Shown: positions 24,790-64,000 of the stretch, piece by piece | How the letters are laid out: each line of letters opens with the position of its first letter | Numbering within the stretch: the first letter of the stretch is position 1 | From: Geosiphon pyriformis | Lineage: Eukaryota > Glomeromycota > Glomeromycetes > Archaeosporales > Geosiphonaceae | Assembly: GCA_016748015.1 (NCBI GenBank) | Contig: JAAOMT010000076.1 | Coordinates: forward strand, 237,129 to 301,128 | DNA: 64,000 nt | Reading direction: 5' to 3' | Notes under the pieces: model-generated | What the model was told of the DNA's origin: nothing | Database searches by the model: none | Seen by the model: the letters and a program-made list of their open reading frames with translations, nothing else | Made by a program: the position numbers and the translations under genes

Positions 24790-25493
24790 ATACTACAATT
24801 AAACCAATTAAGAATGTTGTTATTATGATAGCAAACTTTGCCTTTGCTCCCATACATACCTTGACTTTTAAAAAAATCTGTTTAACCTGCATTTTCGCTT
24901 AATTTAGCAATTAATCCTAGCTGGAGACTTAGTGTGTCAATATTGGTTCTCTGGAGTCTAGAAATCTCAAATGCATAAAACTGCTATCAGTAATCTCATG
25001 CAAATGAAAAATCATTTCTAGAACGATAATTTGTTCCAATCACAGGTGAAACTTGAATCTCCATTCTAATAATCTAAAAGCATCATTAACACCAATCGTT
25101 CCACTTTTAGCACTTACAGTTGAACATCTCTTACGACGAAAATCGGCCCGATGTTCAAACATATAATTTTACCGAGACCAGGATTATAAATGGTATTAGA
25201 AATACATATGGTAATAATAAGCGGCTGACAAATGTTCGTTTTTTCTGCTAGAAAAAAAATAATCGACAGAGGATTAATTGCTTCAAAAAGATATAAAAGC
25301 TATGCCCTTCACCGCTTTTACTTTCATTCTGCTCCAAATTTTCTCCCAAGACCCCGACTTGCCATTCTTAGCCTGTGTACATTATTTTAAAAGATCTCAC
25401 ATTTGCGAATATTCGGGTGACAAGAAAAATTAATTTTTTTTCCTCATCCATCAAAGGACAATTTCAAAGACTCAACCCAATCTTTCATACAAA
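24790..25493. other. Intergenic spacer before the FSP1-like gene
   Basis: No gene is seen. A TATA-like element lies at 25292. Confidence 0.5.
25292..25299 (+). promoter_or_regulatory. TATA-like box of the FSP1-like gene
   Basis: TATAAAAG about 200 bases before the start codon, followed by a pyrimidine-rich stretch. This fits a core promoter with a 5' leader. Confidence 0.35.
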
Positions 25494-26812
25494 ATGACTG
25501 AAAAACAAAACATCATTATAATTGGCGGTGGCTACGCAGGCTTTCAAATTGCTCAAACGCTTGACAAAAGTCTTTCAAAACATTATCAAATCATCCTCAT
25601 TGAACGAAAATCTCATTTCTGGCACTCAATAGGCGCATTACGTTCCGTGGTCATCGAAGGGTTTGAAAAAAATCTTTTGATTCCTTATGATCAAGGGTTC
25701 AAACATGGCACAAAAGTCATCCAAGCTGAGGTCTCAAATATTGCTAAAAATGAAGTCACTCTCAATAAAGAGGTTCAGGAATGGGGTTCAAAGATACCTT
25801 TTGCGTATTTAGTCATTGCAACTGGAAGCAACTATAGCCCACCTGCCAAAGTACAGAATTTGAACAAAGCAGATGTAATTGAAGAGATTTCCAAGAGACG
25901 TGAAGCTGTGAATACTGCCGAAAAGATTTTAATCATTGGTGGTGGTCCCGTTGGTATTGGTGAGTGTTTTTTTTTGTTTGGAAGCTTGTTTTATGGTGGT
26001 TTAATCATTATGGAAGCTAAAGGCTGAGAAATTTTCAAATTTTTACTCCTAACTATACGAGCTTTCTAAAACTCAAAATTCCATGTCAAAACTCAAAAAA
26101 TCTTGCTACTTTTTTACTGTCTCTAGAACTTGCTGGTGAATTGGCAACTGTTCACAAAGATAAAAGAATTACCATTGTTCACGCCCAAAATGACCTCCTG
26201 TCACCTCAATTCCCCAAAAAATTAAGGGATTCCCTTAAACGTCAACTTGAAGACTTGAACGTAACGATAATCTTTGGCGAAAAAGTACTTTTACCTGAAT
26301 CAGGCCTAGGTGATGGGACCAGCCCAAATACCTTGCAGACAGATAAAGGAACAACAATAGAATCTGATGTACAATTCATTGCAACTGGTGCACAGCCAAA
26401 TACTTCACTTGTCGCTACATTAGACGAATCCCTGCTAGAGGAGGATTCAAGGCTTGTTAAAGTTGCCCCAACTTTACAACTTGATCATGAAGAGTTTCCA
26501 CACATTTTTGCAGTTGGCGATATTACAAATGTCAAGGAAACTAAATTAGCATATCGTGCCGGTGCTCAAGCTACAATTGTGGTCAAAAATATTGAAGCCT
26601 TGACAAGTGGGAAATCAAAGAAGCTGCAAGCTTACAAGCCTGGTCCAGAAGCTATATTTGTTACAATAGGAAAAACAAATGGCGCTGGTTTATTACCAAT
26701 GCTTGGAGGAGTTGTTGTTGGACCCTTTATGGTTAAAGGTATTAAAGGAAAAAATTTATTTGTTGACAGGTATTGGAAGCAAAATACTGGCGGCGCCCCA
26801 CCGTCAGATTAG
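25494..26812 (+). CDS. AIFM2/FSP1-like FAD-dependent NAD(P)H oxidoreductase
   Basis: Two exons, 25494-25959 and 26127-26812, encode 383 residues, close to the usual length of AIFM2/AMID/FSP1 proteins. The phase-1 GTGAGT...CTAG intron (167 nt) restores the family motif VGIELAGELA across the junction. Residues 7-16 hold the FAD-binding IIIIGGGYAG. Residues 149-154 hold GGGPVG of the NAD(P)H-binding Rossmann fold. FAVGD near residues 284-287 is the second FAD contact. A basic C-terminal segment ends in FVDRYWKQ. Family members pass electrons from NAD(P)H through FAD to quinones; the animal protein protects membranes from lipid peroxidation and yeast relatives act at mitochondria. The N-terminus is MTEK, without the Gly-2 needed for the myristoylation seen in animal FSP1, and no targeting peptide is obvious. 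Substrate and location are therefore open. Confidence 0.9.
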
Positions 26813-36930: not shown

Positions 36931-38252
36931 ATGGGTGGACCTTTGCCGCTTGGTTGGGAGGAACGAGTAAGTTTAGCCTCCTTTTAAAGATTCTGAACCG
37001 CATTTTCAATTAAGATTCAAGGCCATTTTCGATAATTTTTTTTTCTCATTTTATTTTGTGATAGTACGATGTGGTTAGTGGGTGTAACTTTTGTAAGTTT
37101 TCGAAATTATCTATGTAATAAATTTCTTGAATGTTTCTTATACACAAGTTTAACTTTGAAATTTTCACTCTAAAGTTATTGATCAGAAGACTGGAGAGAG
37201 CACTTGGGTAAGCGAACTTTCAATTTTAAAAAAATTATTACTTAATTGAATTTTACTGATGTCGCATCTTGCTTTCTGTCTTCCAGGATGACCCGAGATT
37301 GAATCATCAGGCAAAACTACCCGTTTATCCATATAGTGCGGGCCCTTCCCCGCCAACTTCCCCGGATCATGTTACTCATATTCAGCATCCATGGGCTTCT
37401 CATTTTCAGTCTGGTAATCAGACTGCTAATCCACAGCTTGTGTCGATGCTATCGTCTGTTAACTATAACCCAGCCTCTCATCCATGGGCCTCAACGAATA
37501 ATCCTTCGACAAACTCATCAGCATTTCCTCAACTAATACCCTTAAATTCAACAATTTCACCTATGCCAATGCACTCTCCTCTAATTCCAATGCCTCAAAT
37601 GCCTCAAATGCCCATAACCCCACCACACATGCCTATATCTTCTCCGATATATACTGTCGGCATTCCAACACCAACACTTGTTACAAACGTCCATCCTCCA
37701 GTACACCAATCTTCAACCCCATTAGCTTTGCATAATCCTACACCTCCAATGATAGCTTCATATCCTCCTAACTCTGCCCCAGTTCCCCTTCAACAAAACT
37801 CTTCATATCCTAGCATACCTGTGCAACATTTTAACCAAACTAACAATTATTACATGGTTGGTTCTTCAGGTCATCAATCAACTAGTGGTAATAATCTTCA
37901 AAAAGAGAGGATCCCAGAAAAAGCTGGAGAGCTTTTAACAACAACCTTGAAAATGGATGTGAAAACAGGAAAAATGGGGAAAAGGTATTTAGGAAAGAAA
38001 GAAGGCAACATGACCAGCAGCAACGCACAACCTCCAAGTCATCAGAATGACACTTTAAAAAAACAAGAAAAAAATTCCCAATACAAAAATCAGAAACCCA
38101 CAGCCGAACCATTTATTACCTCTTTTCAAACTGGCGATTCTTCTCGTGTATATGATACTAAAGGAAATTTGATTTTGATCACACAACCTGAAATCTTGAG
38201 TTCTGGGCCACCGCAAGCAGAAAGTTACCGGGATGGAAATTACCATAATTAA
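36931..38252 (+). CDS. WW-domain protein 1, Pro/Ser-rich
   Basis: Exons 36931-36966, 37065-37092, 37176-37207 and 37287-38252 give 353 residues. The three short exons join to a complete WW domain at residues about 4-36: LPLGWEERYD, GCNFFIDQ, ESTWDDPR, with the two Trp at 9 and 32 and the Pro at 35. All introns are GT-AG and 79-98 nt, in phases 0, 1 and 0. The long last exon is Pro/Ser/Asn-rich and disordered, with a basic segment (about 239-272, KAGELLTTTLKM then KMGKRYLGKK) and a C-terminal VYDTKGNLILI piece. WW domains bind proline-rich ligands such as PPxY, so an adaptor role is likely, but partners are unknown. The next gene is a longer paralog. AATAAA lies at 38539. Confidence 0.85.
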
Positions 38253-39161
38253 TATTGGCACGAGCAGAAACATTCTTCCAGAAAATAATTATGATGCGTA
38301 TGAGAATCAACACTATTTCTGAATATCGCAAAATATACGCCGTTGAAGCATTTCATAGGTATCAAAAACCAATCATACCCTCCTGGTCCGAAAATACCAA
38401 TTCTTTTTTTGATAAAAAGTCGAATCTCAATTTTCGAAATATTGGCATATCGTCTTGGTGATTTAATGTAAATAAATTCAATCCAGCCTTCAGTATACTA
38501 GTTTAACGAGTCATTTTTGAGAGATCCTAAACTAAAGAAATAAAACTCCCAATATTTATTCAAAGTTTGTTTAAGTGTCTTGCCATTTGATTTATGAAAT
38601 CAGTCTTAATTTTCTGCTTTGTCTTTCTAAAATACTTGTGATCCTAATAAACAGAAAAGCATCAAAAAACCTTGCTTTTCAAAATTAAAATCCGTCACCT
38701 CAATCTTTATCCCCATATTTCATTCCATCCGTTAATGGAATTTTCATTAAATTGATTTATGGAAATCTCATTAATTTCAGCCTCATTAAATTGAGGTTTT
38801 TGTAACAAACCACATTGTCAATTTAGCATTTATTCAAAAAATTGAATCCCCGACATTGTGTCACGTTCATAGTTTCTGAAATTAGATTGCCCATCGTTTT
38901 AACTGACCTTTTCTGTTACTCAAAACTTCGGCGATTATTATCAATGCCGGTATAAATAGATTTCAGATTGATTAGCATATTGACAACAAACCTGCAAAAC
39001 CTAAACTCTAAAGCAAAAAGTACAAGCAGAAAAACCAGTACAACATTTTATTTCGAATAAGATAGTTTAGCTCGTCAAAAAGAGGAATATTATACGGTTG
39101 TTACCTCTTGAACATTTCCAAGCAACGAGAAGCGTTTTTACAGAGTAATATATACTAAGAT
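38253..39161. other. Spacer between the WW-domain paralogs
   Basis: It holds the 3' end of the first WW gene (AATAAA at 38539-38544) and the promoter region of the second, including a TATA box. No further gene is seen. Confidence 0.5.
38951..38958 (+). promoter_or_regulatory. TATA box of WW-domain gene 2
   Basis: TATAAATA, a consensus-type TATA box, about 210 bases upstream of the start codon. Confidence 0.45.
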
Positions 39162-42100
39162 ATGTCGGGACCATTGCCACCAGGTTGGCAGGAAAGTGTA
39201 AGTTTATCTTGTAAAGTTCGATCGTATGTGCTGGTTCTGTGGGAGGGTGTTGGTGAAAGGGCTTGCATATATTTAAAAAACAAATAGACAGCTGATTTAA
39301 TGAAAATAGAATAAAACTGGGAAAGCCATAAATATTTTAAGAATTCCTTAGAAGGGTTCGTTTATATTGCGATATTCAATTCAATTTTATAAACGAATAT
39401 TGATTAATTTTGTCGAAAAAGAATTTTCCTTCCTCGTTACATGCAATCTTCAAAATGATATAATTAATCCATCAACCATTTTTTTTGGTTTCAATATCCC
39501 AGGTGGATAAGACTAGTGGACACAGATTTTGTAAGTTATAAATAAGGATCTAGTCCGATTATTTTATCTGAAATTTCCTTTAAAACAAATCAATCAATCA
39601 ATCAATCAACCTTTAATACTACTGAAAATTAATCTTTTGTTTACTCAAAAAGACATACATGCGGCTAGCTCTACAACGACTTGGGTGAGCCTGTTTTGTG
39701 ATTTTTATTATTTTCATGTATTAGTTTCAAGGTCAAGACTAAAAATTTTTAAAATGTAAAGAATGATCCCCGATCTCAAGGTCCGCCCCAACCATTACAA
39801 ACAACCCCAAAGTCTCAAGTATTCGAGGCGGCTGAAGTAAATAACACATCGTCCTCAAGACATAATAGTCATGCCTCATTCGCATTACAATCGCCGACCC
39901 ACCAAGGAAATGTCCCACAATCACCGCAAAAATATGAATATTTAATTCAACAGCCATATTCCCCTTCGCAATCACATAATCAAGCCGCTCACATTTCTAC
40001 TCAATCGTCAATATTACAAGGATCACCGTATTCAAATCCATCCTCACAACGAGGACCTAGTGTCTATTCGAATAATTCTGGATTCCAAGGTTTTCCGAAT
40101 CAGCTGCCTACCCCTTCATATCCCATTGATCAACAATATTTTCATAATCAAGGGAATAAAGAGCAGCAACAAAATTCTTATCAAAATTTGATAAACCAAT
40201 CACAATCTGGACAGGGATTCGCTCATCAACAACATAGCTATCCCCAACAAACCCAACCACCGCAACAAATTAAACCGAATGATCAATCACAAGGATCGAA
40301 ATCAAAGATAGCAACTGATTTTGTAAAAGCTGGAAAAGGAATTTTGAAATCTATAAAATCGAGTAAAGCCGGTAAAGTATTTGGAGGAAAAAATTCATCA
40401 TCTCAATCACAATCAAATCACCAACATCAACAACCTCAGCATCAGTATCAAGGAGCATACCATCAAACTGCTGTAGGTGGATATCCAATTCAACCTTACG
40501 TTCCAAACCATGGGCAGCAATCTCAACCAGTAACCTATGATCCTTATGCAACTCAATATTCAGGATACGGTTCACAACCTAGCAGTGAATATGGTATCAA
40601 CGCTCCTATATATTCAAATGTTAATACACAACAATATAGTTCAACACCACAAGTCGCCTCTCCTGTACAAACATCTCAAAAAATCCAAGGATATTATTCA
40701 AACCCACCAATTCAAACTTCCACATTGCAACAACCTGAAAGACCTGAAAGCTTTAGCTCAGCTCCTAACACATTTCAAAAGCCACATGGAACTAATTTCT
40801 TCGTACAACTGTCTGACCCACCAAGACAATCAATTACTAGTTTGAGTTCAAACCAAGGACAAAAACCACCACAAGAGGCCACCATACAATATTCGCTTCC
40901 ATCTACAGAACCATCTCAACAACCTCCACGACATCAATCGGCTCAGCTTGTATCAGTATCCACTGAAAACTCATCAGTGTATCCACCAGAGAAAAATTCT
41001 TTCCACAAACAAACTGCTCAATTTGGATCAATATCTGCAGAGAATCCATCCGGGCGTTCACCGGAAATACATAATTCACACAAACAAATAACTCAATTTG
41101 AATTAACTGCTGAAAATCCATCCGCGTATCCGCCCACAACCTCATCAGTTCAATATTCGCATCCGTATTCATATCCTCCTCCATCCTTTTATCCACCTCC
41201 TAAGGAAAATCCAACGGCTGAACCATCCAAATATAGCTTTTCTGGTAAAGCTTCTACCGAACTTACAGCGGCAAATCAGTCGCCATCTGGTCAATCACCA
41301 TATATATTAGCATCATCCACATTCTCAGGTCAACAAAATGCATATCCACCTCCTTTATCAAACCACCCCCCACCCTCATCAACTTATTCACCCCCACCAT
41401 CCGATAATTATGAATTTAAAGATGATTTGAAAAAAGAATCTGAAATTACCTCAGCTAATCCCCAAAATATACCACCGCCTAACTTACAACTCCAAGATCA
41501 GAACCCACCAGTGTCTGGTCAAAAAATTGGTGCCTCTTCACAAGATTTATCTGATCGATATCCTCCTTCACCGGTCACATCTTTAGATTCGATTGTCAAT
41601 CATGAATCATTAAACCATCCATTTCCCCCAGCGGCAGGTCAATTTAATCAATTTTTACAAACGAATATTGATATTCTGCCATCACATAATGTGAGTGATA
41701 ATCAAGAGCTATTATCAAAAAGGATTACAACTACCTTTTTTTTGCTACACTTAGATCTCTAAGTCGTTCCCTCTCCTGATATATTTAAACAAAGTTTACT
41801 AATCTTTCATTTCCCTCCCGATAAATAGTACGATTCAACAATGAGTTCTCAAATTTATCCACCAAATAATCATGAAAATAATCCCCCATCGGACAGTCAA
41901 GAAAATAAACCACCATCACCACAGCAAACAGCATACCCCTCAATCTCGAAAAATGAGCCTAATCATTCAACGACACCTCAATCGTTTTCTCAAGAAAACC
42001 TAAATTTGTCTTCATCTCCAAAAAATCCTTTGCAAAACACAAATAATTCACCTGCTTCAACTAATGTTTCTGAATATTCAACGCTAAAAGATGATTTTCG

Positions 42101-43363
42101 ACATCCCGTTCAGTTTTATCCTCCTCCGTCAGCACAACTTTATCCTCCACCAATAAGTCCAGGAAAGGTGGAGAACACAAATAATTCCCCTGCTCCAACG
42201 AATGTTTCTGAATATTCAACGCTAAGAGATGATTTTCGACATCCCGTTCAGTTTTACCCTCCTCCGTCAGCACAACTTTATCCTCCACCAATAAGCCCAG
42301 GAAAGGTTGAGAAGCACAAGCAAAATCCTCAAGGATATACTAAGGACGATGAAACTCAACAACCATATCCACCAGCTTCACAAAATCAACAAGAACAGCA
42401 GGATTCTTTAACCTCTTATCTGTCTTCACAACAAAATCAACAAGTACAGCAGCATTCTTTAACCTCTTATCCGGCGTCTTCACAAAATAGTCCTCCTCGA
42501 CGGGAACCCGATAACTTTACATTGCCAACTTCCTATGGTTCCTCTCAAATAGCTGTCACAGCACCCTTACGTTTTAATAGTCGTCCAAATTCAATCTCGG
42601 GTAAACAAGGACAATCGGTTTGTAATAAGTTTACTCTTTAATTTCGACCAATTTATATATAGATGATTATTGATGTGTAATATTTGATCCAATTAAATCA
42701 ATCACATTTATAATTCGTTACTAGGAAGTTCCTCAAGAAACTGTTACCCAATCAACCACGACGACTGTTGAAACTTCCCTTAAATCAGATTCACAAGAGC
42801 ATGTTAGTGCTGAGGAGATCACAGCTGATATTAATAAGTTAATGAATGCAATTACACTTGATGGAACCTCTGATTCTGGACCTCAAACAAACCCAAGTAT
42901 TTTTCAACAACAACAACAATACCAACACTCAAATGTACCTCAACAGCAACAACAGCAATATCAATATTATCCGCAGCAGCAATCACAACCATATTACCCA
43001 CAGCCACAACAAAAACAACCACCACCACCACAACAGTATTTTCCACAACAGCCACAACAAAGACAACAACCACCACCACAGCAGTATTTTCCGCAACAGC
43101 CACAATTTCACCAACAGCAAACTTCTCACGAACAAAATTATTCAGGACAACATAAACAGCAATCAAGCTCCTCATCATCGATATTAACAAGTGACGGTAG
43201 AATAGTGTACAAGTTGCATGATCCTGGCTTCTTGGGACAACCTGACACTAGTAGCTCGAGACAAAATGCACAACAGCCAGAGCAACACTCCCAGGTCTAT
43301 GAACAAGAGCTTTATTATCACCATCAACGAGAACAAGAAAGACTGCGTAACGAGCATGCATAG
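39162..43363 (+). CDS. WW-domain protein 2, Pro/Gln-rich
   Basis: Six exons: 39162-39197, 39503-39530, 39653-39684, 39762-41690, 41829-42617 and 42725-43363, giving 1150 residues. All junctions are GT-AG. The first three exons encode a WW domain (GPLPPGWQES, GHRFYIHA, TTTWNDPR; Trp 9 and 32) and have the same sizes (36, 28, 32 nt) and phases as in the gene before it. The rest is disordered Pro/Gln/Ser/Tyr-rich sequence. It has repeated FYPPP/LYPPP pieces, a basic segment at about 210-245 (KAGKGILKSIKSSKAGK) like that of the paralog, a duplicated 46-residue unit in exon 5, and polyglutamine in exon 6. A more ordered C-terminal block reads TSDGRIVYKLHDPGFLG. A scaffold role is likely by family; the partners are unknown. 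Ends in the Pro/Gln exons could shift if minor introns exist. Confidence 0.85.
42036..42311 (+). repeat. 138-bp tandem duplication inside WW gene 2
   Basis: Two near-identical in-frame copies with a 138-base period (46 residues each) start at 42036 and 42174. Both encode NVSEYSTL followed by DDFRHPVQFYPPP and LYPPPISPGKVE. Confidence 0.9.
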
Positions 43364-46603: not shown

Positions 46604-46991
46604 CGATATGGATTTCTGGTTGGATAGATTAGAACCGGTCATTTGGAAACTTGTCGAAACATATCGTGGTAATATTGATCAAGATTTTTGGAGTAAGGTT
46701 ATAATGTCAAAAGGTGGTGGATCCGGGATGCCAGTTTATTGGGACGGTTGGATCTCTGCCTTCTTTCCTTATGACAATACCGGTCATAAGTTGACAAAAA
46801 ATAGTATTGAAGCTGCAAATATACCGAAAGGACAAGTAAATGTTCCATTCGACACAGATATTGGTTTCGTTTTAAGTTTTGTCGCTGGTTTTTTGGGTGC
46901 TCAGCAAGAGAGTTTTGGAGAGGGTGACGAGACTGAAGTTATTGTTTCCCCAGTTATTGGTTGGCTTGTGGTGGACCAAATAAAAGATTGA
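46604..46991 (+). CDS. DUF4419 protein, 3' part
   Basis: The open frame runs out of the assembly gap and codes for about 128 residues to a TGA stop. It contains the DUF4419 hallmarks: DFWSKV, a Gly/Ser-rich turn, YWDGWISAFFPY, a VPFDTDIGF-like segment and a C-terminal hydrophobic piece ending SPVIGWLVVDQ. DUF4419 is of unknown function and is found in many copies in fungi, including Glomeromycotina. Family members are usually 300-450 residues, so more than half is missing here. The first ATG after the gap (46608) is unlikely to be the true start. With no stop or frameshift visible, the gene may be intact in the organism. Confidence 0.8.
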
Positions 46992-52320: not shown

Positions 52321-52824
52321 ATGACACCTTTGAAATCAGCAAAACCTTTGAATCAACGAAAACGTCGTAACCCTTACGAAATTGACACGACTGGTCGCCG
52401 ATATATATTCCAAGTAAGAGGAGCCGAATATGCAAAAAGCCGTCGGTCAAGAAATCAAAATTCATCATGTGATAGTAATTGTAAAAGTTGTGAGGAATCA
52501 AATGAATTTTTTAATTTTATGGAAGCTCAACTTGATGAATTTGAAAAGAAGCTAAATAATGCGATTCAAGTTGCCGAAAATTCTTGTCATTCTAATAGTG
52601 AAGATAAATTTTTTGCTGAAAAATTGAACATTGATTTCTCAAAGATGAGCATTGATGAATTGCTGAAAGTCTCGAAAAATGTTGGTGATTTAGTTTCAAG
52701 CCCAAGGTCAAAAACGGATTTTCAAAGAAAAGAAAAACCCCGCTCTCAACAAGAAACATTAGAGTTTGATTTTAATAATCAACTCGAATATTCTACATTG
52801 CCTGATATGATATTATGGGTGTGA
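52321..52824 (+). CDS. Small CxxC/coiled-coil paralog A
   Basis: A single exon of 167 residues and the first of six related genes. A basic N-terminus (QRKRR) leads to DTTGRRYIFQVRG (22-34), a Tyr at 37, a basic patch, then CKSC (54-57, with extra Cys at 50). A predicted coiled coil runs from about 60 to 88 (FMEAQLDEFEKKLNNAI). The conserved SIDELLKVSKN motif starts at 110. A 45-residue tail beyond that motif is found only in this member. No signal peptide or membrane segment is visible, so the protein is probably intracellular. With a single CxxC, metal binding would need a dimer or other ligands. I do not recognise the family. It is continuous at the point where D, E and F have an intron. 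Confidence 0.75.
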   Translation: MTPLKSAKPLNQRKRRNPYEIDTTGRRYIFQVRGAEYAKSRRSRNQNSSCDSNCKSCEESNEFFNFMEAQLDEFEKKLNNAIQVAENSCHSNSEDKFFAEKLNIDFSKMSIDELLKVSKNVGDLVSSPRSKTDFQRKEKPRSQQETLEFDFNNQLEYSTLPDMILWV

Positions 52825-54028
52825 ACCAAATCAAATTATTTTATGTATATTTAATCTCATTACCTCTATTGGTTGATTCAAGAACGAAAGATTTTTATAT
52901 TTATTTTGTTTAATTTTAATTTTGAGAAAAAAATTATATATATAGAAAAAAATAATCAAAAGATTAGATCTTTATATCCGAAAAAATATCGATTTAACAA
53001 GACATTTATTTAAAATATATTCTTAGATCAAAATAGAATAATTTGATCCGAGTGAAAATATTTTTTCTTTCATAAAACGTTCATTTTAAAAAAATTTTAT
53101 TCCTATCGTTTAAGAGTTTAGAAAAACGAAATATTAATAAGCATGTGAAAGCTTGAGATTTTTCATAGAACTTTCTTTTAGAAATTGAATCATCTTCAAG
53201 ATATATTGTAATCTATAAATGCTATTTTTCACAATTATTTATCTTTAAAAGAGCAAAGAATGAAAAAAATATTTTTATTTGAATAACTTTTTATTTTATC
53301 CATGAATCTGATTTTATAATTGTTGGATAAAAAAATTTTCATCTGTTTAGAATATCAATAGTGGGGAGTACCGAAGTAATTTTTTTTTTACTCGGGAATC
53401 ATTTTATTAAGGAAACCTTCCTTAGATTATTAATGCAGTTTTTACTAATATCAATGTTTCTAGAAGATCAATTTAAATTTTTTGGGAATTCCCGTAAATT
53501 TAAATAAATAAACTTGAACACATGCCGGATTTGTTTACTTTCATTAATATATACCAATTGTCTAATTATGGGAAAAAATTCTTATATCTAATCCAACTGG
53601 GTTTTATTCATGCAGCAAATGAAAAGCCTAGATTTCTGTTTTATTCTGCTCAATAGAATCTGTGGCAAAGTAGTTGAGCGACATCAATTCGTTATGGCGT
53701 CTTTTTAATTTCTTTTATCATTTATTTATAGTGTTACGAGCTTTCAATTGTAAGATTAAATAAAAAACTTGGAAAATTTTTTTAGATCGGTGAGTTCGGA
53801 AAACAACTTGCGGAGATAGTGAATATCGAAAATATATAAAGCGAGAATTGGTTTCAGGTTTCGAGGTGTAATTTTTTCAAAAGATTTAAATAGAGGTAAT
53901 TACTACTATTTAACTCTGAAAGTTTCACTAGAATTCGTTACAAAACAAAAACAAAAACAAAAACAAAAACACTTGCTATTCTTTCTTTGAATTCATAAAT
54001 CCCAAAAAAATTATCTAATTAAAACGAG
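52825..54028. other. Spacer between paralogs A and B
   Basis: No gene is seen. It contains a (AAAAC)n stretch at 53941-53970, a TATA-like box and the promoter region of paralog B. Confidence 0.5.
53833..53840 (+). promoter_or_regulatory. TATA-like box of paralog B
   Basis: TATATAAA about 196 bases before the start codon. It is a weaker call than for A because of the distance and the AT-rich setting. Confidence 0.3.
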
Positions 54029-54355
54029 ATGCAAACCCCTAATTCGACTTCATTTGATGCCACTGGACGGAAACATATCTTTAAATTAAGAGGCGATAAT
54101 TATCGTTCTACGCGTCGTTCACTTAATAAAAAACTAAAATTAGAGAAAAATTGCTGCCATTGCAATGAACTCGATCAATACATAAGCACATTAGAGAAGA
54201 GTTCCAGCAACATTGAACAACAATTGAATTATTTAACGGAGCTTTCGAACATGAATTTACAAAGGATTCTAAATAGTGATACAATCACCAATGAGAAAGT
54301 TAATTTATCAGAGCTTAGCATAGATGAATTATTAAGAGTATCAATAAGCATTTAA
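54029..54355 (+). CDS. Small CxxC/coiled-coil paralog B
   Basis: A single exon of 108 residues, the shortest and cleanest member. It has DATGRKHIFKLRGDNY (10-25), a basic patch (RSTRRS), CCHC (42-45), and a heptad-like helix of about 50-78 (YISTLEKSSSNIEQQLNYL). It ends almost immediately after SELSIDELLRVS (95-105). The spacing between blocks matches members E and F closely. No intron is present at the SIDELL junction. Function is unknown. The repeated conservation of the G-R-K-H-I-F block, the CxxC and the C-terminal motif among diverged copies implies that all three matter. Confidence 0.8.
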   Translation: MQTPNSTSFDATGRKHIFKLRGDNYRSTRRSLNKKLKLEKNCCHCNELDQYISTLEKSSSNIEQQLNYLTELSNMNLQRILNSDTITNEKVNLSELSIDELLRVSISI

Positions 54356-54550
54356 TTTAATAATCCAAAATAAAAAGGATATTTAAGTTAAAAACATTTC
54401 AATCTAAGCAAATGTCAACATTTCTTGAAAAGATTCTTTTTTTGAATATTTTTCATTTCTTTAAAATTAAGTTTTAAGAAACTTTCCCATAAGTTACATT
54501 TAAAGTTTTCAGCATCATAGAATTTGGCCTTTTGAAGATCTATATAAACA

Positions 54551-54551
<1 letters not shown>

Positions 54552-54582
<31 letters not shown>
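54552..54582. repeat. (ATT)n microsatellite
   Basis: About 10 ATT units. Confidence 0.9.
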
Positions 54583-54584
<2 letters not shown>

Positions 54585-54740
54585 CTCTAAAAAAGTTTTG
54601 CACATGTAATAGCTTTTCTACTTTTTAAGATGGCTAATTATAAAATTGTGAAACAATGACATCATATTTTCACCAATTTAATATGTGGAATGCTTAATTC
54701 AGAAGTAAAATTAGATAACAATGTAAAAAAAATGTCGGTA

Positions 54741-54804
54741 AACCGGGCTCGGAAAACGAAGAATACCCGGTTGTACTACATCTAGGTAAAAGCCCGTTAG
54801 ATGT
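54741..54804. other. Two adjacent perfect 7-bp stem-loops
   Basis: AACCGGG (54741-54747) pairs with CCCGGTT (54766-54772). Six bases further, ACATCTA (54778-54784) pairs with TAGATGT (54798-54804). The patch is far richer in G and C than its surroundings and lies about 150-215 bases before paralog C. It may be a transposon relic, a binding site or a structured leader. Confidence 0.4.
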
Positions 54805-54954
54805 GACCAGTTTTTTGCATAATAAAAAAATTATATATATAATTAGTTTGGATTATGAAAAATAGATAAAAAAAGATTTTCGCTTCAAATAAAAAGTTTA
54901 AAGCAATTAATTTCAAATTTTTGCAAACAAATTTATCAAAGTTCTCTAATCACA

Positions 54955-55153
54955 ATGTCTCCAATTAAATCTATCAAAAAATTTTTCTTGATTCAAAGAC
55001 GAAATGCTTCGCAAATTAACTCCGGTACTCATCAGCAAATATTTACGGATCGTAAAAATCAAATTTCTAAATCAACCTTTCAACGGTTAAATCCTTATAT
55101 AAATGAATGTTATTCTTTTAAATACGAAGAAGAAGAAGAAGAAGAAGAAGAAG

Positions 55154-55185
<32 letters not shown>

Positions 55186-55365
55186 CCTGAAGAAATAATC
55201 AACGAGATGCAACTCCGAATTCAAGAAGCCCAAGAAAAACTTAATCATCTAATAGAAGCGTCAAAGATAAATGTTCCAACGAATGGTGGTCGGTTTTTAA
55301 AAGAACAACTAAATTTTAATCAATTAACCACAGATGACCTGTTAAAGATGACAGAAGATCTCTAA
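54955..55365 (+). CDS. Paralog C, diverged, with polyglutamate tract
   Basis: A single exon of 136 residues. It keeps a basic start, a weak form of the first block (SGTHQQIF, 23-30), the helix (QLRIQEAQEKLNHLIEA) and the C-terminal motif LTTDDLLKMTEDL. The CxxC is absent. In its place, after a lone Cys, stands a pure run of about 19 Glu (58-76) encoded by a GAA microsatellite. The gene may be evolving a new role or decaying, but the frame is fully open across the repeat. There is no intron at the DDLL junction. Membership rests on order and position of blocks and is less certain than for A, B, E and F. Confidence 0.6.
55126..55182 (+). repeat. (GAA)n microsatellite in coding sequence
   Basis: About 19 GAA units, in frame as polyglutamate in paralog C. 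Length changes by whole units keep the frame. Confidence 0.95.
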
Positions 55366-56470
55366 GCCCAATTTTATGAAAACCAAAATTATAGATTAAT
55401 TTAATTTAATGTTAATTCGTAAATGACTAAAATTTGATAACTAAATTATAAAAAAATAAGCTGAAATATATGAAAAATATGTAGAAAAATTTTTTTTCTT
55501 AAAAATAAAGTTTCAATCGTATGACTTTCTGGGTTTTGCCGGTGAAAATCGTTCGATTTATGAGAATTGTTGTAAAATATTTATTAATTGAACTGTTATA
55601 AAAGAGATTCCGAAAATTGAACTAATTAAAATTTTTACTAATATACTCTTGAACGTTTTTACACTAATAATTTTTAATTTCTTAGCGTCCGACTACTATA
55701 ATATATCGAAATTCTTTAGTTTTAAGAGAATCTAGAATTCGAAAATATTATATATAAAAATATATAAACTTTTATTTCTCTTCAGACCATCTAATTCTCG
55801 GAAACAAAGTTAAAAATCAAGATTTTCTTTAGAAATTTTCGAATGCAGAGAGGCTTCAAAGGTGGATTATTTTAAATTTAGTACGAATATTGTTGAATAA
55901 CTATAACGAGCTAAATATTTTAATATATAAATATTTTAGAATTATCTTTACATATTTAGAGCTTTTAAATTCCGAACGAATTCTCCAAAGAAATCTAGTG
56001 GTTAAGATCTTGGTATTCTTTTGCGTTACCAAGTCAAATATCTCAATTTTGCTTTTAAATAATTAGCTAATCTTCAAAAATAATTTTAAATCTGCATTAA
56101 TATTCTTAGTAGAAAAGCTCGACACTTTTACATTCAGAAAACTTACTCAACTGAGTTGAACATCTTTACGAGTCTTTTATAATAAGTCGAATAAAAATGT
56201 CGCCCACTTTCCAAATATTGAAAAATGTCAAACCTCAGAAAAATCATGCAACAATAATCAATAATCATTTCTATAAAAGGTCTACAGGTAGAATTTTTAT
56301 TGTATCTCTCGTTTAATATATCTCATTGAGAAAACTATATTTATTGTAATAATAATAAATTCGCAGAAATTGAGAACTATTTCAATAGGATAATAAAAAT
56401 TATTACTTATAAAAATGTGTAAATAATATACGGTGCAAGTTTATTTGAATGGTTTATTTCTTAAACGGGA

Positions 56471-56487
56471 GTCCGAATAATTCGGAC
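56471..56487. other. Near-perfect palindrome
   Basis: GTCCGAATAATTCGGAC: 8-bp arms around one base. It lies about 430 bases before paralog D in otherwise AT-rich DNA. Confidence 0.6.
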
Positions 56488-56674
56488 CCTATCTCATACG
56501 GAAATTGATATAATTAATCTATTTTAGGTGACAGCGCCCAGCCCTTTTCAGAGCATATCGGATCCCAAGGTTCCTCTTTACTTTGTTAGATCCCGTTTTG
56601 ATCCGTACACTATATTTAGTAAAAGATTGTTTTTTGTTTGAACATTCTAGATTATATAAGAATTTAAAATCCAG

Positions 56675-56754
56675 AATTAAATTCAATTAAATTAAATTCA
56701 ATTCAATTAAATTAAATTCAATTCAATTCAATTCAATTCAATTCAATTCAATTA
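56675..56754. repeat. (AATTC)n / AATTA-variant minisatellite
   Basis: Repeated AATTC units with AATTA interruptions over about 80 bases. Confidence 0.9.
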
Positions 56755-56799
56755 GAATCTTCTTCACGTCCATAGGAGCTGATTAAGATTGAAAAAAAG

Positions 56800-56808
56800 T
56801 ATAAAAAG
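56800..56808 (+). promoter_or_regulatory. TATA box of paralog D
   Basis: TATAAAAAG 105 bases before the start codon. Confidence 0.4.
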
Positions 56809-56904
56809 CGATGATAAATTTAAAAATTTTTTGTATTCAAAGGAGCAATTTCCATTCAAACTATAAAATATTTTTCATCTCAAAATTTAACCTCGAATAA
56901 AAAT

Positions 56905-57418
56905 ATGCCTCCTTGCAAATCAACCTTAAATCACAGTCAAAAAAGAAATACATACTCTAAAAAGTCCAAATCAAGTTATAATCATGTATTTCGAATTTCT
57001 GGTGACCAATATTCCACACGTAAAATAAACAAAGAAATTAAAACTGTAAATGATTGTTGCAACTCTTGTCAAAAACATGTAGAATATATGGGAATTTTAC
57101 AAGATAGCCTAAATCGTATGACAGAAAGATTGAAAGAACTTGAGGAGGAAATGACTAAAAAAGTTCAATACGCTTCTTCGTATCTAGAAACTTTCAGTGC
57201 TAATGCCACGAATTATTCTCAAATGGTAAGTTAAATTTGATTGATTCTTTCAAAAACTGTTAATAAAATATGCTAACCAGTTGAATATGCACTTACCAAT
57301 ATTTATCTTTTTATAGAGCACAGAAAATCTTTTAGAATTCTCTCAAAACTTTTCAATGCGTTTAATATATGTAGAGACTGGGAAAAGTAATACAAATGTA
57401 GGAACACGAACCAAATAG
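56905..57418 (+). CDS. Small CxxC/coiled-coil paralog D
   Basis: Two exons, 56905-57225 and 57317-57418, encode 140 residues. The 91-nt phase-0 intron is GTAAGT...TATAG. A basic Lys/Ser-rich start leads to NHVFRISGDQY (26-36), then CNSC (52-55, with Cys 51) and a long coiled coil (about 60-90, ILQDSLNRMTERLKELEEEM). Exon 2 begins STENLLEFSQNF, the counterpart of SIDELL, and adds a polar tail. The G at the first-block DxTG position is replaced (SKSSYNHVF), so this member is diverged in front but standard behind. Function is unknown. Confidence 0.75.
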
Positions 57419-58226
57419 AAAATGCATAATTTTTATTATTATTCAAGAATTTGATTACCTTTTCTTCAATATTTTATTTATTTATTTTCTTTGAATGGTT
57501 TGAGATTTTGAAAAAAGAAAAATCTATGTCTTCAATATAGGAAAAATAGTTTCTATCTAACGATAAAATTCGTCGATCTTTTTTTAATAAGCCCAATCGG
57601 CAACCTCCATCATCTCTGTAATTTAGAATTAATAATGAATATTCTCAAAAGCCTGTGAAATTCAAACAAATTTTTCAAAGAAACATTACTACACACACAT
57701 AAACTTTCTAAAAAAGAAAAAAAGAAAAAGGGGGTTAGGAAATTTCTAACCAATGTAAATCTGAATAAGCAGGCTCATTACTTGAACAATAAAAAATTTG
57801 TTATTCAAATAATCTACTTCGATTTTGTTGTCCAAAAAATATCAAAAGAGCATATCTTTTAGTAATTCTTTATTATCAACACTCTCAAAGATCGATAGTT
57901 GACAAAAAAAGAAATTCAATAATATAACAGTTGAGAGTGGTAAATAAAAAAAATAAAAAAATAAATTTAAATTTCAAGTTACGTATTAAGGGTACAATCT
58001 TTGATCTTATTTTCAAAAAACACGGAGTAAACTTATTCTAATCAGACAAACTCCTGTAATTGAGATTTTAAAGCATAACGGGAACCACTCTTGATAAATT
58101 ACAAGTAAAGAGCTCGTGATCGGGAAAGAATTAGCTAGCAATAGGTTTCGATAAGAGTTTAATTTGTTTTAAGTCTTTTGAGTATAAATTATCTTCTAAA
58201 AAGATTGTTTCATCTAAAAAACTTTT

Positions 58227-58283
<57 letters not shown>

Positions 58284-58294
58284 TAATAATAATA

Positions 58295-58336
<42 letters not shown>

Positions 58337-59762
58337 TTTTCAATATTTTTAGTTTCACTTTTCGGGGAAATTTCTTTGTTTTATGCATTAACTTATTAAT
58401 CTAAAGTCTGAATTTCGAATGCAATTTAAAAAAGGAAAAAAGAACAAAAAGGCCTCAGTGGGCCTGGAAAGATATCTAAAATCATTACCAATTAGCATTT
58501 TGAGTACATATACTATTTCTTTTTATGCGAATGTTTTGCCAAGATTAGAGTAAATATTTTTTTACAAAGCTCATTCATTAAATTAAAAATTTTGTAATAT
58601 AATCCCCCAGGGAAAATATATGAATCAAACTTGTTTTTACCTTGAGCAATCGATCGAGAATTTTTTTTTCCCCTTAATTATGTGTTTTTTCTTTGATCAA
58701 TTAGAACCGTTCAAAATAATAGATTTCAAACCTGAACTTAAAAAAAATATTGTCTTTATGTCCCACAATGTGAATTAATTCGAATTTTCTCTTGGAAATA
58801 CTAAATACTAAATACTAAATACCAATCATAATTAAGATGTATATATATAAGTGACAATTGAAACATTTTCACTTTAGGATTTAAAAAATTGAACCATTAT
58901 TTAAGAAATTTGAAGAAAAATTTTATTCAACACACTCGACAAAATAAGATCCTCATAAAACAATATCCATTAATAGAACAGGATTAGCTATGACTAATTT
59001 TTGTAACTAAAACACAAAGAAAAGGTAATAGAAATCTTGAAAGAAAAAAGATTTGTAATATAAAGAGCGATAATTTCCGTTCAAGAGAAACAATATCTGT
59101 AACCGAATTAGATTAGATTTTATTTTGTCGTTCAAAATAAAACAATAAGAGAAAGAATAGTAGAAAGCAGAGATTAAATTAATGAGAAAAATGGGAAATT
59201 TTATTTTATTTTGTAGACAAGGAATAGTTTGAATAGTTTGGGTTAACTGCATATTCTAGGTTTCCAAAACTTTAGAAATGGATATAAATTATTAAGATTC
59301 ATGCAGAATTTGGATTTACAACGGATTTGATATCGGGCATATGTTTTGAAGCATGGTATATTTAATGTATTATCAATTTGTAGATTTTTCCTTCATGTGA
59401 TTGCATATAAAAAAAATGTTTACTCGTGGAAAGTTCTATCCGATGCCATAAATATAATACAGGGATTAACTTTATGGTTTTATTTACATTCGGATGACGT
59501 TGATAAAGAGTTTAAATGATAATATTTTTTTTAATGCATAAAAAAATTTTGTTCTCTTGACCCGAAATAATAATGAACGCCTCTGTCGTACAATGACTAG
59601 ATTTGATGAAACTAGAAAATTTGAATTTTAAAGCCTCATTGAGGCTGATATTGTTGTAGCTTTTCATTCCCCCGTTTGAGATTGATTATAATGCAATAAA
59701 AAAATTGAAAAAAAAATTGAAAATTTTTTTTCTTTTTTCAAAGTAAATTTAATGGGAAGTAA
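57419..59762. other. Spacer between paralog D and the next open frame
   Basis: No gene is seen. It contains a long AAT array at 58227-58336 that generates a false polytyrosine open frame on the minus strand. Confidence 0.5.
58227..58336. repeat. (AAT)n microsatellite, long and interrupted
   Basis: About 110 bases of AAT units with two AAAT interruptions. Confidence 0.95.
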
Positions 59763-60011
59763 ATGTCTGATAACAATTTAGATATGAAAGTATTTAAAAG
59801 TCTGACTTTTTTATGCTTTGATGAACAAATTAGGCCTTTTAAAGTTTTATTTTATAATGGTAGAAAGAGCAAGAAAAGTTCAGATTCATCATTTACATAT
59901 TCACAATATATTTTAGTCTTTGAAAAAAATCAACCGAAAATCACCTATGAAACATTTGTGAGCTATAAAACTAAAATTCTTTTGAATACTGAATTTAGCC
60001 AAAAAAATTAG
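59763..60011 (+). CDS. Hypothetical 82-residue protein
   Basis: An open frame from ATG to TAG between paralogs D and E, with balanced residue use (FKVLFYNGRKSKKSSDSSF, then QYILVFEKNQPKITYETF). It has no CxxC or SIDELL motif and is not an evident family member. It could be a small gene, an exon, or a fragment of a dead gene. I recognise no domain. Confidence 0.3.
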   Translation: MSDNNLDMKVFKSLTFLCFDEQIRPFKVLFYNGRKSKKSSDSSFTYSQYILVFEKNQPKITYETFVSYKTKILLNTEFSQKN

Positions 60012-60286
60012 TAACCTCAATCAAATTTACAAATAGAATTTCATTTAAAAATATCTCAAGCTACAACATTCTGCAGAACTAGCCACACTTGTTGCAGTTC
60101 TCGCTAAGAAGCGAGACTAAAATATAATTATTAAATTAATTCATTTGGAAGTTAAATGACAAATGAGAAAAAACTAAACTAATTATGGAAAAACTCAACA
60201 TCCCAAAAATTGCTTGATCTCCTTGTTTTTTTTTCAATAAATTTATCAGCCTCGTACCCTTGCCTTTTACTTTTTACCTTTTAAAA

Positions 60287-60775
60287 ATGGCACATTTAAC
60301 CTCTCTAAATTCTTTACAAGGTCGTTCAAACACTAATGGTGCAATGGATACTACTGGAAGGCGTCACATTTTTAAAATTAAAAGTGATAAATATCCTCCA
60401 ATCCGTCGTACTCAGAAAATTAGAACGAATTTAGAACTTTGCAAGAGATGTGATCAAAATGACCAGTACGTTGAAACGCTGGAAGCTCATATAGATGAAT
60501 TGGATAGAGCCGTAGAGAATTTAACACATTTGTTAAATTGTCTCATCAATATAAGTCCTGATCTTGAGAGCAAAAAAAATTCTTTTATTTTAAACGATTC
60601 AAATCAATTCTCAAATTTGGTAAGAAAGTTAACCTTTATATACTTGATTTATAAAGTAATTTTATTTAATATCTCATTAAATTTTGCTTTTAATATATCA
60701 ATATTATTTATTTAGAACATTGAAGAATTATTGAAATTTTCAGACAAAATCACAGAAGAAACAAAATTAAAATAG
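60287..60775 (+). CDS. Small CxxC/coiled-coil paralog E
   Basis: Two exons, 60287-60619 and 60716-60775, encode 130 residues. The 96-nt phase-0 intron is GTAAGA...TTTAG. MDTTGRRHIFKIKSDKY (20-36) is the best copy of the first block. A basic stretch (RRTQKIR), CKRC (52-55) and a regular coiled coil follow (about 60-85, YVETLEAHIDELDRAVENL). Exon 2 opens with NIEELLKFSDK and ends after 19 residues. Reading through the donor gives a hydrophobic tail that is clearly intronic. The start is the first ATG in frame. Function is unknown. Confidence 0.8.
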
Positions 60776-60822
60776 TTTTAAACATATGAAAAAAATACTA
60801 TTTATCATTTTTTCTTTTGAAC

Positions 60823-60823
<1 letters not shown>

Positions 60824-60861
<38 letters not shown>
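60824..60861. repeat. (ATT)n microsatellite
   Basis: About 12 ATT units, 50 bases after paralog E. Confidence 0.9.
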
Positions 60862-61847
60862 TCTGTAAGAATATATAAATTTTAAAATGTCTCATTACCT
60901 ATCTTCTTCTTCTTCTTCTTAATTCAGATAAGCTTATGATAAAATTAAGTTAATAGCTTTTTTATTAAATAGAAACCCATGACTTAAACTGGAAATTCTT
61001 ATCCAGAATTATTAATGATTAAAATGTTCCCGGGTATGGTTAAATATGGTAAAATGTATAGCGTCATCGGCCGCTCAGTGATCTTCATTTACTTGCTGAC
61101 TGCTGGACTAATAATTTCATGAACGAACAAAAAAAATTAAGCCTTTGATGTAAGTAATCAATCAAAAGAATTCACATGTTTTGAGTTAAAAGCCCATTTA
61201 AAGGCAAAAGAAACTTTAAAAAAAATGAGTCAAGAAGAGAATAAAATGAATTAAGATTAGTTATTTTTGATTTTTTGGAAAAACGAGCACATTAGGGATA
61301 AAAGCTTAGTCATGCTTCTATTATATCAGTTTTCCGAACACTCATGATAATATGAAAAACTAATTTTGGTAAAAAATAAAAAGAAGCAATATGAGAGTTG
61401 ATTTTTTTTTTTTTTTTTCATTGACCAAGAAACTTTAAGAATTAAGTTTTTTTTTAAAAAAAGGAAATATTACAATTTTTATCTTCATAATTTTATGTAT
61501 CCAATTTTAATTATTCAAAATTAATTCGTTAACGAATCAATATATTAGATTAATTGTAATTAATTTTCGTATCACAGTGTATGACATCTGATCCAAATTT
61601 TATGGTGTCATTATAAGAAAAAAAAAATGAAGTAATGGATATTTTTGGATATTTTGGCGCTATAATGACGCTTGTTTTTAATGCCTATTCCAGAAATGTG
61701 AAAAGAGATCTTGGAATTAAGATTACAAATGTTTATCTTTTCATCTGGGAGTTATTTATTTGAAAATGTGACAAATGAAAGGGGTGTGAAAGTCACTAAA
61801 ATAGAAAGTCATTAAATACTTGGCGGAATTGCATGAAAAAGCCATTA

Positions 61848-61878
<31 letters not shown>

Positions 61879-62225
61879 AATGAACTGATTCAAAAATCAT
61901 AAGTTAGAAAAATACAAAATTATTCACATGTAAAATTATATTAAAAATTTATAATTTTAAGCCCAATTTCTTAACAAAGAATTAACAAATGGCTTAAAAA
62001 TGGTTCTTATTCAGTTGAATAATAATTTATTTAAATTTTTAATCTTAACAAGAAAGTTTTTAATTTGTGTAAAATTTTCTTTGTTTAATTAATTTATGAA
62101 ATTGAAATATTTTCATTGGTAAATTTCAAATTGTATTAGTGTAGTATATAATATTTTTTATATGAATTAAGTAACTTGAAAAAATAATTTTTAATATACT
62201 AAATATTCTGATTGAAAAATCAGTT

Positions 62226-62234
62226 TATATAAAT
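62226..62234 (+). promoter_or_regulatory. TATA-like box of paralog F
   Basis: TATATAAAT about 136 bases before the start codon. Confidence 0.3.
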
Positions 62235-62361
62235 ACTATTCAGAATAACTCCTCAAATTTTAGATCAATTTACTTCTTTGAATCGGCAAATATTTTAGTT
62301 GCTAATTTCAATAAAAATTCTGAATTCCCTTAAAAATTATGTTTCTTATAAGCTTCACAAA

Positions 62362-62834
62362 ATGTTGAATCAAAAGTCTCAAGCAACAAAACTAAAATCA
62401 ATTAGTAATTTCACTTCAAAGCCAAGAATTCATCGAAATAATTCTGTAATTGACTTGAGTGGTAAAAAGCACATGTGGATCATTAGAGGTCAAGGCTACT
62501 CTTCATCTAAAGCTTCTAAGAAGCAAGAAACAATCGAAACATGTCGAAAATGTAATCAAACGAATCACTATGTAGATGTTTTAGAACAAAGATTAGAAAC
62601 GATCGAACAAGTTGTAAATAATTTAACTGCTTTGACAATTTCAAACGTTAACCATGATAACAATCCAACAAACCAACAAATATGGACAGATATTTCTAAT
62701 ATGGTAAATTCAAAATTTCAATATTAAAATAGAAAAAAAATATATCTTTTCTAAAATATAAAAATTAATATATTTTAAATTTTTCTCTAAAGTCAATAGA
62801 TGACCTTTTACACCTCGTAATGAATTTGTGTTGA
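62362..62834 (+). CDS. Small CxxC/coiled-coil paralog F
   Basis: Two exons, 62362-62703 and 62793-62834, encode 127 residues. The 89-nt phase-0 intron is GTAAAT...TAAAG, a weaker acceptor than in D and E. A basic start leads to DLSGKKHMWIIRGQGY (31-46), a Lys/Ser patch, CRKC (61-64), and a coiled coil (about 68-92, YVDVLEQRLETIEQVVNNL). Exon 2 reads SIDDLLHLVMNLC. The start chosen is the first ATG in frame after upstream stops. The Trp in the first block is unique to this member. It is the last recognisable copy in the window. Confidence 0.75.
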
Positions 62835-64000
62835 AACGCCTAAAAATTTATAAATTCATTACATTAAGCCTTTAATTTTAAATCAAATAATTTTGTAAAT
62901 AACTCTTTAAGAAGAACTATGTTTATACAGTGAAAAAGGGTTACTTTTTGAATTATTTATTAATTAAGAGCTCTTTTTTTAGTTTAAATATGATTTTTGA
63001 ATTAAGCTTTAAATTATTTTGAGCAATAAGTTTTTTTATAACGTACTATCTATGTGGTTTCAAATTAAATCAAATCAAATCAAACTAAATTAAATATTTT
63101 ATTTTATTCTCGAAGCTAGAAAATTTTTAAGAGTAATTTCCTGTTTAATCAATAAATATAAAATTATTTGGATGATACGGAGTTTTTACTCCTCATTAAT
63201 TTAAATTTTAAATTTTTTCAATTACAAAGTCATGAACTGGTCACGATGTCATTTTATGAATTAATTGGTTCTAAATATATATATACTATTTCATCATCAA
63301 GCATTAATAAATGGCAATTGAAAGAAGATACATACAAGGTACAATTGTCATAAAAATTTTTTTTTTTCATTCATCCACGTTTTCAAAATTCAAATATCAA
63401 GTTTAATAAATATTCAACTTGTTTTGAATCTGAAATCAAAATTAAGTTTGCCATTTTTTTATGATATCATTTATGAAAAGTAAGAATTGATCACATAGAA
63501 ATAACTTTCAAAAGTATTAAACAATTAAAATTAAATATTTATTACTTTTTTGTACATATTCTAAACATAAATAAAATTAAAAAAAGTGACTCAGAACTCC
63601 CATACTAGAACTTTAAAATATATAGAATTATTTCGGAAAAAAAATTATCTTTTGGGTAAAATTTTTATTCTCTTATCCCTTCTTTCCAATTAAGAAAATT
63701 TTTATTTATTTTATATCCATGTTTCATTTCATCAAAAAACTGCATGATGTATGTCAATAAAAAAAATTCATACATACATGTATTGCGCTGTCTATACATG
63801 TGTATCATATATATAATATTCAAATATATGATCTTAATTAATACAGTTGATTTCTTTGATTAAAAATGTGATGCGAAAGGCGTTTTTCTAACTTATAAGA
63901 ATAATTAATATTCTGAAACTATAATAAATAAATAAATAAATAAATTGAGAGTTATTGAGAGTTTTCATTTAAATTATACATAAAAAATGCTATAACGGAA
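62835..64000. other. Intergenic to the window end
   Basis: No gene is supported. An open frame ending at 63353 has a short WD-repeat-like piece but no wider support. Short AAATC (about 63068-63092) and AAAT (about 63924-63945) repeats are present. Confidence 0.4.

What the first reader, a model, noticed from the sequence alone, without database searches (positions are those of the whole stretch)
52321..62834. Tandem array of six genes for an unrecognised small CxxC/coiled-coil protein family
Seen: six plus-strand genes (52321, 54029, 54955, 56905, 60287, 62362) share, in order, a basic start, a G-[RK]-[RKH]-[HY]-[IVM]-[FW] block followed by [RK]-[GS]-x-x-Y, a single CxxC, a coiled-coil-like helix and a C-terminal SIDELL-type motif. 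Outside these blocks they are strongly diverged, so the blocks appear to be under selection. I know no named family with this layout. Inference: a lineage-specific family expanded by local duplication. The single CxxC next to a coiled coil suggests a metal- or disulfide-linked dimer.
Basis: partly seen in the sequence, partly recalled or inferred. Interest (0 to 1): 0.85.

Follow-up and report, generated by a model that had tools for sequence, protein, structure and literature searches.

The report
Orphan zipper-protein gene cluster
A eukaryotic genome carries a small clustered family of fast-changing genes for short, probably paired helical proteins that matched no known family in the libraries searched; the family is real, but what it does is a guess.

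Summary
The array is real. Six plus-strand genes lie at 52321-62834, the last coordinate being where the spliced sixth gene ends. The layout needs correction: the G-x-x-H-I-F block fits 4 of 6 window genes, CxxC 5 of 6; gene C has neither; D, E and F carry the LL motif on a second exon behind a phase-0 intron. At least 14 loci exist, 11 intact (six in the window, two further along the contig, three as a B-C-D block on another contig), 3 damaged. Leave-one-subfamily-out profiles recover every subfamily, C weakest. Joint omega is 0.545 (p 0.0023 against 1), but only one of three pairs rejects 1 alone. All 11 share a heptad zipper and a C-terminal LL helix; CxxC is in 8. Pfam gives no match over cut-off and no hit shared by more than 2 of 11; PDB, viral-contig and prokaryote searches found no credible relative. 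No eukaryotic proteome could be searched and the organism is unidentified. Best reading: small parallel coiled-coil dimers, pinned by shared zinc where CxxC exists, showing paired LL docking helices. Function is inferred only.

The parts
52321..52824 (+). gene A, 167 aa, no intron; CxxC at 52480-52491
54029..54355 (+). gene B, 108 aa, no intron; CxxC at 54152-54163
54955..55365 (+). gene C, 136 aa, no intron; lacks CxxC and the GRRHIF block, has a glutamate run, keeps the zipper and TTDDLL
56905..57225 (+). gene D exon 1 (CxxC at 57058-57069)
57226..57316 (+). gene D phase-0 intron, 91 nt, GT-AG
57317..57418 (+). gene D exon 2, begins with STENLL
60287..60619 (+). gene E exon 1 (CxxC at 60440-60451)
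60620..60715 (+). gene E phase-0 intron, 96 nt
60716..60775 (+). gene E exon 2, begins with NIEELL
62362..62703 (+). gene F exon 1 (CxxC at 62542-62553)
62704..62792 (+). gene F phase-0 intron, 89 nt
62793..62834 (+). gene F exon 2, begins with SIDDLL

Best explanation
The array codes for a family of small (108-167 aa), non-enzymatic dimeric adaptor proteins. Shown: homology, exon layout, heptad zipper, weak purifying selection on coding sequence. Inferred: each chain forms one long helix whose heptads pair in parallel with a second chain, the same protein or a paralogue. In members with CxxC the second Cys falls on an 'a' position one heptad before the zipper, so two chains bring four cysteines together, most simply as one shared zinc site, as reported for CtIP. 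The dimer then presents two N-terminal basic-aromatic blocks and two C-terminal LL helices that dock on a partner, possibly in the nucleus. Members without CxxC (B', C, C') would form metal-free or mixed dimers. Local duplication and loss vary the set.
For: Zipper: 63 of 77 a/d positions hydrophobic against 25 of 165 others over 11 genes; 0 of 20,000 shuffles reach it at fixed phase, 0 of 3,000 at best phase. CxxC register relative to the zipper is the same in the 8 members that have it. AlphaFold for B: helix 29-82 through CxxC (42-45), ten-residue means 82-97 over residues 31-70, and a second helix 98-107 over SIDELL (means 63-64 there). LL motif 11 of 11. N-terminal part net positive in 10 of 11. 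Joint omega 0.545, p 0.0023. CtIP precedent: C89/C92 in a parallel dimeric coil, 1 zinc to 2 chains (PMC8205527, passages read).
Against: No expression, metal or dimer data. Whole-model confidence is low (pLDDT 73, pTM 0.36 for B; 60 and 0.25 for A, where the helix starts at residue 55, so CxxC at 54-57 is at its edge). Foldseek against PDB with the B model found nothing at E 10 or better. CxxC is missing in 3 of 11. In the CtIP crystal (Cys changed to Ala) the residues at the zinc positions pointed outward. B/B' (2dl 2.59) and D/D' (2.19) alone do not reject omega 1. Nuclear site and docking partner rest on composition only.
Confidence: 0.4

Rival explanations
1. Degenerate bZIP: descendants of a bZIP transcription factor that lost the DNA-binding basic region and now act, if at all, as dominant-negative zipper partners of the genome's bZIPs.
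For: The zipper opens as in many bZIPs (Y-[VI]-x-x-L-E). CREB bZIP chains head the PDB list of the 11-member profile (E 0.11-0.15) and appear at 0.37-0.98 with smaller profiles; F matches bZIP_2 at E 0.2. The genome holds at least 11 bZIP_2 matches as possible partners.
Against: None of the family is among those 11 matches. Profile-profile comparison with 8 of the 11 gives probability 2.7 (P 0.017, 33 columns, coil only). The N-x7-R basic signature (recalled) is in 8 of 8 of those bZIPs and in none of the family; G and H hold N-x7-C, ending on the first Cys of CxxC, 3 residues out of the bZIP spacing to the first Leu. Weak bZIP hits are usual for any coiled coil.
Confidence: 0.12
2. Redox or disulfide-linked structural proteins: CxxC forms inter-chain disulfides and the family is a structural coil, not a zinc dimer or adaptor.
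For: CxxC at the start of the zipper suits inter-chain disulfides as well as zinc.
Against: No evident signal peptide or membrane stretch (read from the sequence, no program run), so the proteins probably stay in the reducing cytosol or nucleus; 3 of 11 lack CxxC.
Confidence: 0.2
3. Near-neutral remains: young duplicates on the way to decay with little function.
For: 3 of 14 loci are damaged; omega is high for a coding gene (0.44-0.63 by pair) and two of three pairs do not reject 1. The D intron (69% identical) is nearly as alike as the coding sequence (78%), so the spacer contrast may partly reflect insertions and deletions rather than constraint.
Against: 11 frames intact, splice sites in register, CDS 78-85% identical where the B-C and C-D spacers are near shuffled background (50-52% against 48%), joint test rejects omega 1.
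Confidence: 0.13
4. A shortened relative of Mediator subunit MED4: a coil followed by an LL-type helix, perhaps binding the MED4 partner or site.
For: Spliced E matches Pfam Med4 at E 6.6e-4 over residues 43-128 of 130, zipper and LL exon together.
Against: 19.8 bits against a cut-off of 26.9; 1 of 11 members matches, at E up to 10; no Mediator chain in the PDB lists of the 11-member profile or of E alone. Hits of the same strength to unrelated coils occur for other members.
Confidence: 0.05
5. The family is an already described fungal or eukaryotic family not reached by the tools.
For: No eukaryotic proteome or transcriptome was searchable; Pfam profiles can miss fast-evolving short proteins.
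Against: Pfam-A (11 proteins) and PDB gave no credible match; paper searches aimed at it (capped listings, words only) listed nothing that describes it.
Confidence: 0.1

Closest known systems
CtIP N-terminal coiled coil (zinc motif C89/C92)
   Same: a single CxxC lying in a parallel dimeric coil, zinc shared by two chains (PMC8205527, passages)
   Different: CtIP is far longer and tetrameric, with coil on both sides of the Cys pair; no sequence match here; 3 of 11 genes here lack CxxC
Rad50 zinc hook
   Same: Cys pairs from two chains bind one zinc at a coiled-coil dimer interface (search listing and starts of abstracts only)
   Different: the hook sits at the apex of a long antiparallel coil in an ATPase (recalled); here the coil is short, without hairpin or ATPase
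bZIP transcription factors (Pfam PF07716/PF00170)
   Same: basic N-terminal part followed by a heptad zipper
   Different: no N-x7-R basic signature, no Pfam match over cut-off, profile probability 2.7
Mediator subunit MED4 (Pfam PF10018)
   Same: E alone matches over coil and LL helix at 6.6e-4
   Different: under cut-off, 1 of 11 members
Lineage-restricted genes of arbuscular mycorrhizal fungi
   Same: clustered, fast-evolving, no named domain; a burst of Glomeromycotina-restricted genes is reported for Rhizophagus (PMC10234402: abstract, passages and sections 18-19 read)
   Different: those sections name no family with this layout; the window's organism was not identified here

Membership tests
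bZIP | Pfam bZIP match over the curated cut-off | tested here: not met
   best is F against bZIP_2, E 0.2, 12 bits against 22.3; no family locus among 11 genome matches
bZIP | N-x7-R basic signature (recalled) before the zipper | tested here: not met
   0 of 11 hold N-x7-R; G and H hold N-x7-C at another spacing; 8 of 8 bZIPs of the genome hold N-x7-R
bZIP | leucine-zipper heptads | tested here: met
   63 of 77 a/d positions hydrophobic; common to all coiled coils
CtIP/Sae2 | sequence profile match | tested here: not met
   no CtIP or Sae2 family among the Pfam hits listed for the 11 proteins (one search shows 25 of 36 families)
CtIP/Sae2 | CxxC in a dimeric coil with shared zinc | not testable with these tools
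   CxxC next to or inside the coil in 8 of 11; metal binding not measurable
Rad50 zinc hook | CxxC at the apex between two coil arms of an SMC-type ATPase (recalled) | tested here: not met
   108-167 aa proteins with one coil and no ATPase match
MED4 | Pfam Med4 match over the curated cut-off | tested here: not met
   E only, 19.8 bits against 26.9; 1 of 11 members
this new family | zipper plus C-terminal LL helix in all intact members | tested here: met
   11 of 11
this new family | GRRHIF-type block and CxxC | tested here: inconclusive

The most novel reading that the evidence does not exclude
A previously undescribed family of zinc-pinned zipper adaptors in which tandem copies, with and without CxxC, form a combinatorial set of homo- and heterodimers that display different pairs of docking blocks: a rapidly diversifying regulatory or recognition set.
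Probability: 0.1. Interest if true: 0.6.

Novelty: new variant of a known kind. Interest (0 to 1): 0.35.

Why it matters
It adds a defined orphan family, with 11 intact paralogues, three pairs for rate tests, a conserved exon boundary and a testable zinc-dimer model, to the nameless genes of a large AT-rich eukaryotic genome. If the dimers mix, it would be a compact case of a dimer network evolving by tandem duplication. Without expression or relatives it is so far a good description, not a discovery of function.

Tried and rejected
Known-domain reading: no Pfam hit of the 11 proteins is over its cut-off. Searches were given unspliced frames for D, E, F, G, H and D' (H without its first three residues); searches used the spliced proteins. 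Best hits: Rota_NS53 for F (2.4e-4 unspliced, 4.9e-4 spliced; 20.6 and 19.6 bits against 22.4), Med4 for E (6.6e-4), ARGLU for C' (0.0012), Anthrax-tox_M for A (0.0014), COG6_N for D (0.0018 unspliced, 0.0051 spliced). They differ between members: of the 25 shown of 36 families, none matches more than 2 of 11 members. I take them as chance coil or low-complexity hits, and keep Med4 as a weak rival. PHROGs, six window proteins (D, E, F as first exons): best phrog_9414 for D, 2.9e-5, coil only, unknown function. PDB profiles: best TFIID subunit 5 at 0.014 with nine partly spliced members, falling to 0.19 with all 11 whole. Viral and prokaryotic origin: none of 66 and 73 pattern matches was a relative, with a profile of only E, G and B.

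Intron history: the tree (11 proteins, 3 of 8 inner branches well supported) needs two intron changes; one loss is neither shown nor excluded. Allelic copies: C132 genes are too diverged (dS 0.34-0.43) for simple alleles. Shared promoter: no 7-base word with two or more G/C was in more than 4 of 11 upstream stretches. Block-wise selection was too small to read: omega by block ranged 0.32-1.55 with wide intervals, above 1 in the GRKHIF and SIDELL blocks of B and the N block of D. In the ML test the glutamate run of C (codons 61-79) was left out.

Taxon: not settled. Rfam 18S search of the genome unanswered three times; primer AML2 0 matches.

Full report
What is there. The window is bases 237129-301128 of contig C311 in a 124.7 Mb, 406-contig genome. 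A, B and C are single frames. D, E and F each need one GT-AG intron of 91, 96 and 89 nt, phase 0, directly before the LL-type motif; removing it gives complete proteins of 140, 130 and 127 aa and ends F at 62834. Introns were read from sequence, without transcripts.

The family beyond the window. tblastn of the genome with eight members (E, B, F, A, C, D, G, H) gives 14 loci: A-F; G at C311:301.4 kb and H at 309.6 kb, both minus strand; a damaged C copy at 305.8 kb (C''); B', C', D' in the same order on C132:45.3-49.3 kb; a stop-ridden copy near C300:1638.8 kb closest to G; and a frame-broken copy at C401:1495.8 kb. Eleven have intact frames. The search scores only its best candidates, so counts are lower bounds; weaker matches (E above 0.01) on other contigs were not counted. 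G, H and D' share the phase-0 intron (103, 94, 88 nt); A, B, B', C and C' lack it. C'' matches C over about 1.8 kb including flanks, with one gap, and the C300 copy matches G over about 500 bp including intron sequence, so both came from DNA duplication, not retrocopying.

Is it one family? Leaving out each subfamily in turn and searching with a profile of the rest gives E (for 40,000 sequences) of 6e-27 (A), 2e-21 and 5e-18 (B', B), 4e-13 and 2e-7 (D, D'), 3e-24 (E), 1e-21 (F), 1e-26 (G), 3e-23 (H), and only 2.8e-4 and 0.014 for C' and C; decoys (122 frames of the window, 11 reversed proteins) reach 6.2 at best. C belongs by this score, by its place in both blocks, and by its N-terminal and LL ends, but it is the weakest member.

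What is conserved. The zipper is in all 11: 63 of 77 a/d positions are hydrophobic against 25 of 165 others, and no shuffle reaches that (0 of 20,000 at fixed phase, 0 of 3,000 at best phase). So the zipper and the LL helix define the family; CxxC and the GRRHIF block are traits of part of it.

Selection. For the three C311/C132 pairs, codon ML gives omega 0.56 (B), 0.44 (C, glutamate run left out) and 0.63 (D). Singly only C rejects 1 (2dl 5.11); jointly omega is 0.545, 2dl 9.27, p 0.0023. Coding identity is 81, 85 and 78%, while the B-C and C-D spacers are 50 and 52% against 48% for shuffled sequence, 400 bp upstream of B 54% (49% shuffled) and downstream of D 49% (50%). The D intron is 69%, so some non-coding sequence has kept pace with silent sites, and part of the spacer contrast may be insertions and deletions. 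Simple counts by block are too small to say that any block is under stronger constraint, and some block values exceed 1. The genes are under purifying selection, but weakly.

Shape. AlphaFold on B with five window relatives (D, E, F as first exons) gives a helix 29-82 that runs through CxxC and a helix 98-107 over SIDELL, with low overall confidence (pLDDT 73, pTM 0.36). On A the helix is 55-89 and the rest is poor (60, 0.25). Foldseek of the B model against PDB gave no match. The second Cys is seven residues before the first 'a' position scored in every CxxC member, so two parallel chains would bring four Cys together. CtIP is the closest mechanistic precedent: C89/C92 in a parallel dimeric coil with one zinc per two chains, though its crystal (Cys changed to Ala) showed those residues facing out (PMC8205527, passages read).

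What it is not. No Pfam family over cut-off for the 11 proteins, and among the 25 of 36 families shown none matches more than 2 of them. The bZIP reading was tested: the genome has at least 11 bZIP_2 matches, none of them this family; a profile of 8 of those 11 against the family gives probability 2.7 (P 0.017, coil only); N-x7-R is in 8 of 8 of those bZIPs and 0 of 11 here. CREB chains do head the PDB list of the 11-member profile, at E 0.11. One late lead, Med4 for spliced E at 6.6e-4, is under cut-off and in 1 of 11 members. Viral and prokaryotic contig scans with a three-member profile found no relative.

What remains open. The paper on Rhizophagus (PMC10234402; passages, abstract and two sections read) reports a burst of lineage-restricted genes, which would make such a family ordinary there. 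Nine paper searches were made, not all aimed at the family, with capped listings; none listed a paper that by its title and abstract describes it. Expression, metal binding, partners and cell location are unknown. The adaptor-dimer mechanism is my inference at 0.4.

Noticed in passing
46605-46988 (+): C-terminal part of a DUF4419 protein (PF14388, E 1.3e-17); the frame just upstream holds a run of N.
   Followed up: partly
23451-24665 (+): RING-variant (RINGv) protein, E 2.7e-9, in a GC-richer stretch.
   Followed up: partly
25434-26809 (+): Two frames that together span a pyridine nucleotide-disulphide oxidoreductase (PF07992, 6e-17 and 4e-16), probably one gene with an intron (inference).
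   Followed up: partly
37260-43360 (+): Long P/Q/S-rich low-complexity frames with negative GC skew; the three scanned (37260-38249, 39753-41759, 42725-43360) have no Pfam match at E 0.01.
   Followed up: partly
63793-63996 and L028:3876-4075: A 200-bp stretch about 1 kb past F recurs inverted (84%) directly beside the damaged C copy, a trace of local rearrangement.
   Followed up: no
L030 (C132:45.3-49.3 kb): B-C-D block duplicated with order kept and spacers diverged; B' has lost the second Cys of CxxC.
   Followed up: yes
60287-60775 (+), gene E: Spliced E matches Pfam Med4 (Mediator subunit 4) at 6.6e-4, under cut-off, over zipper and LL exon.
   Followed up: partly
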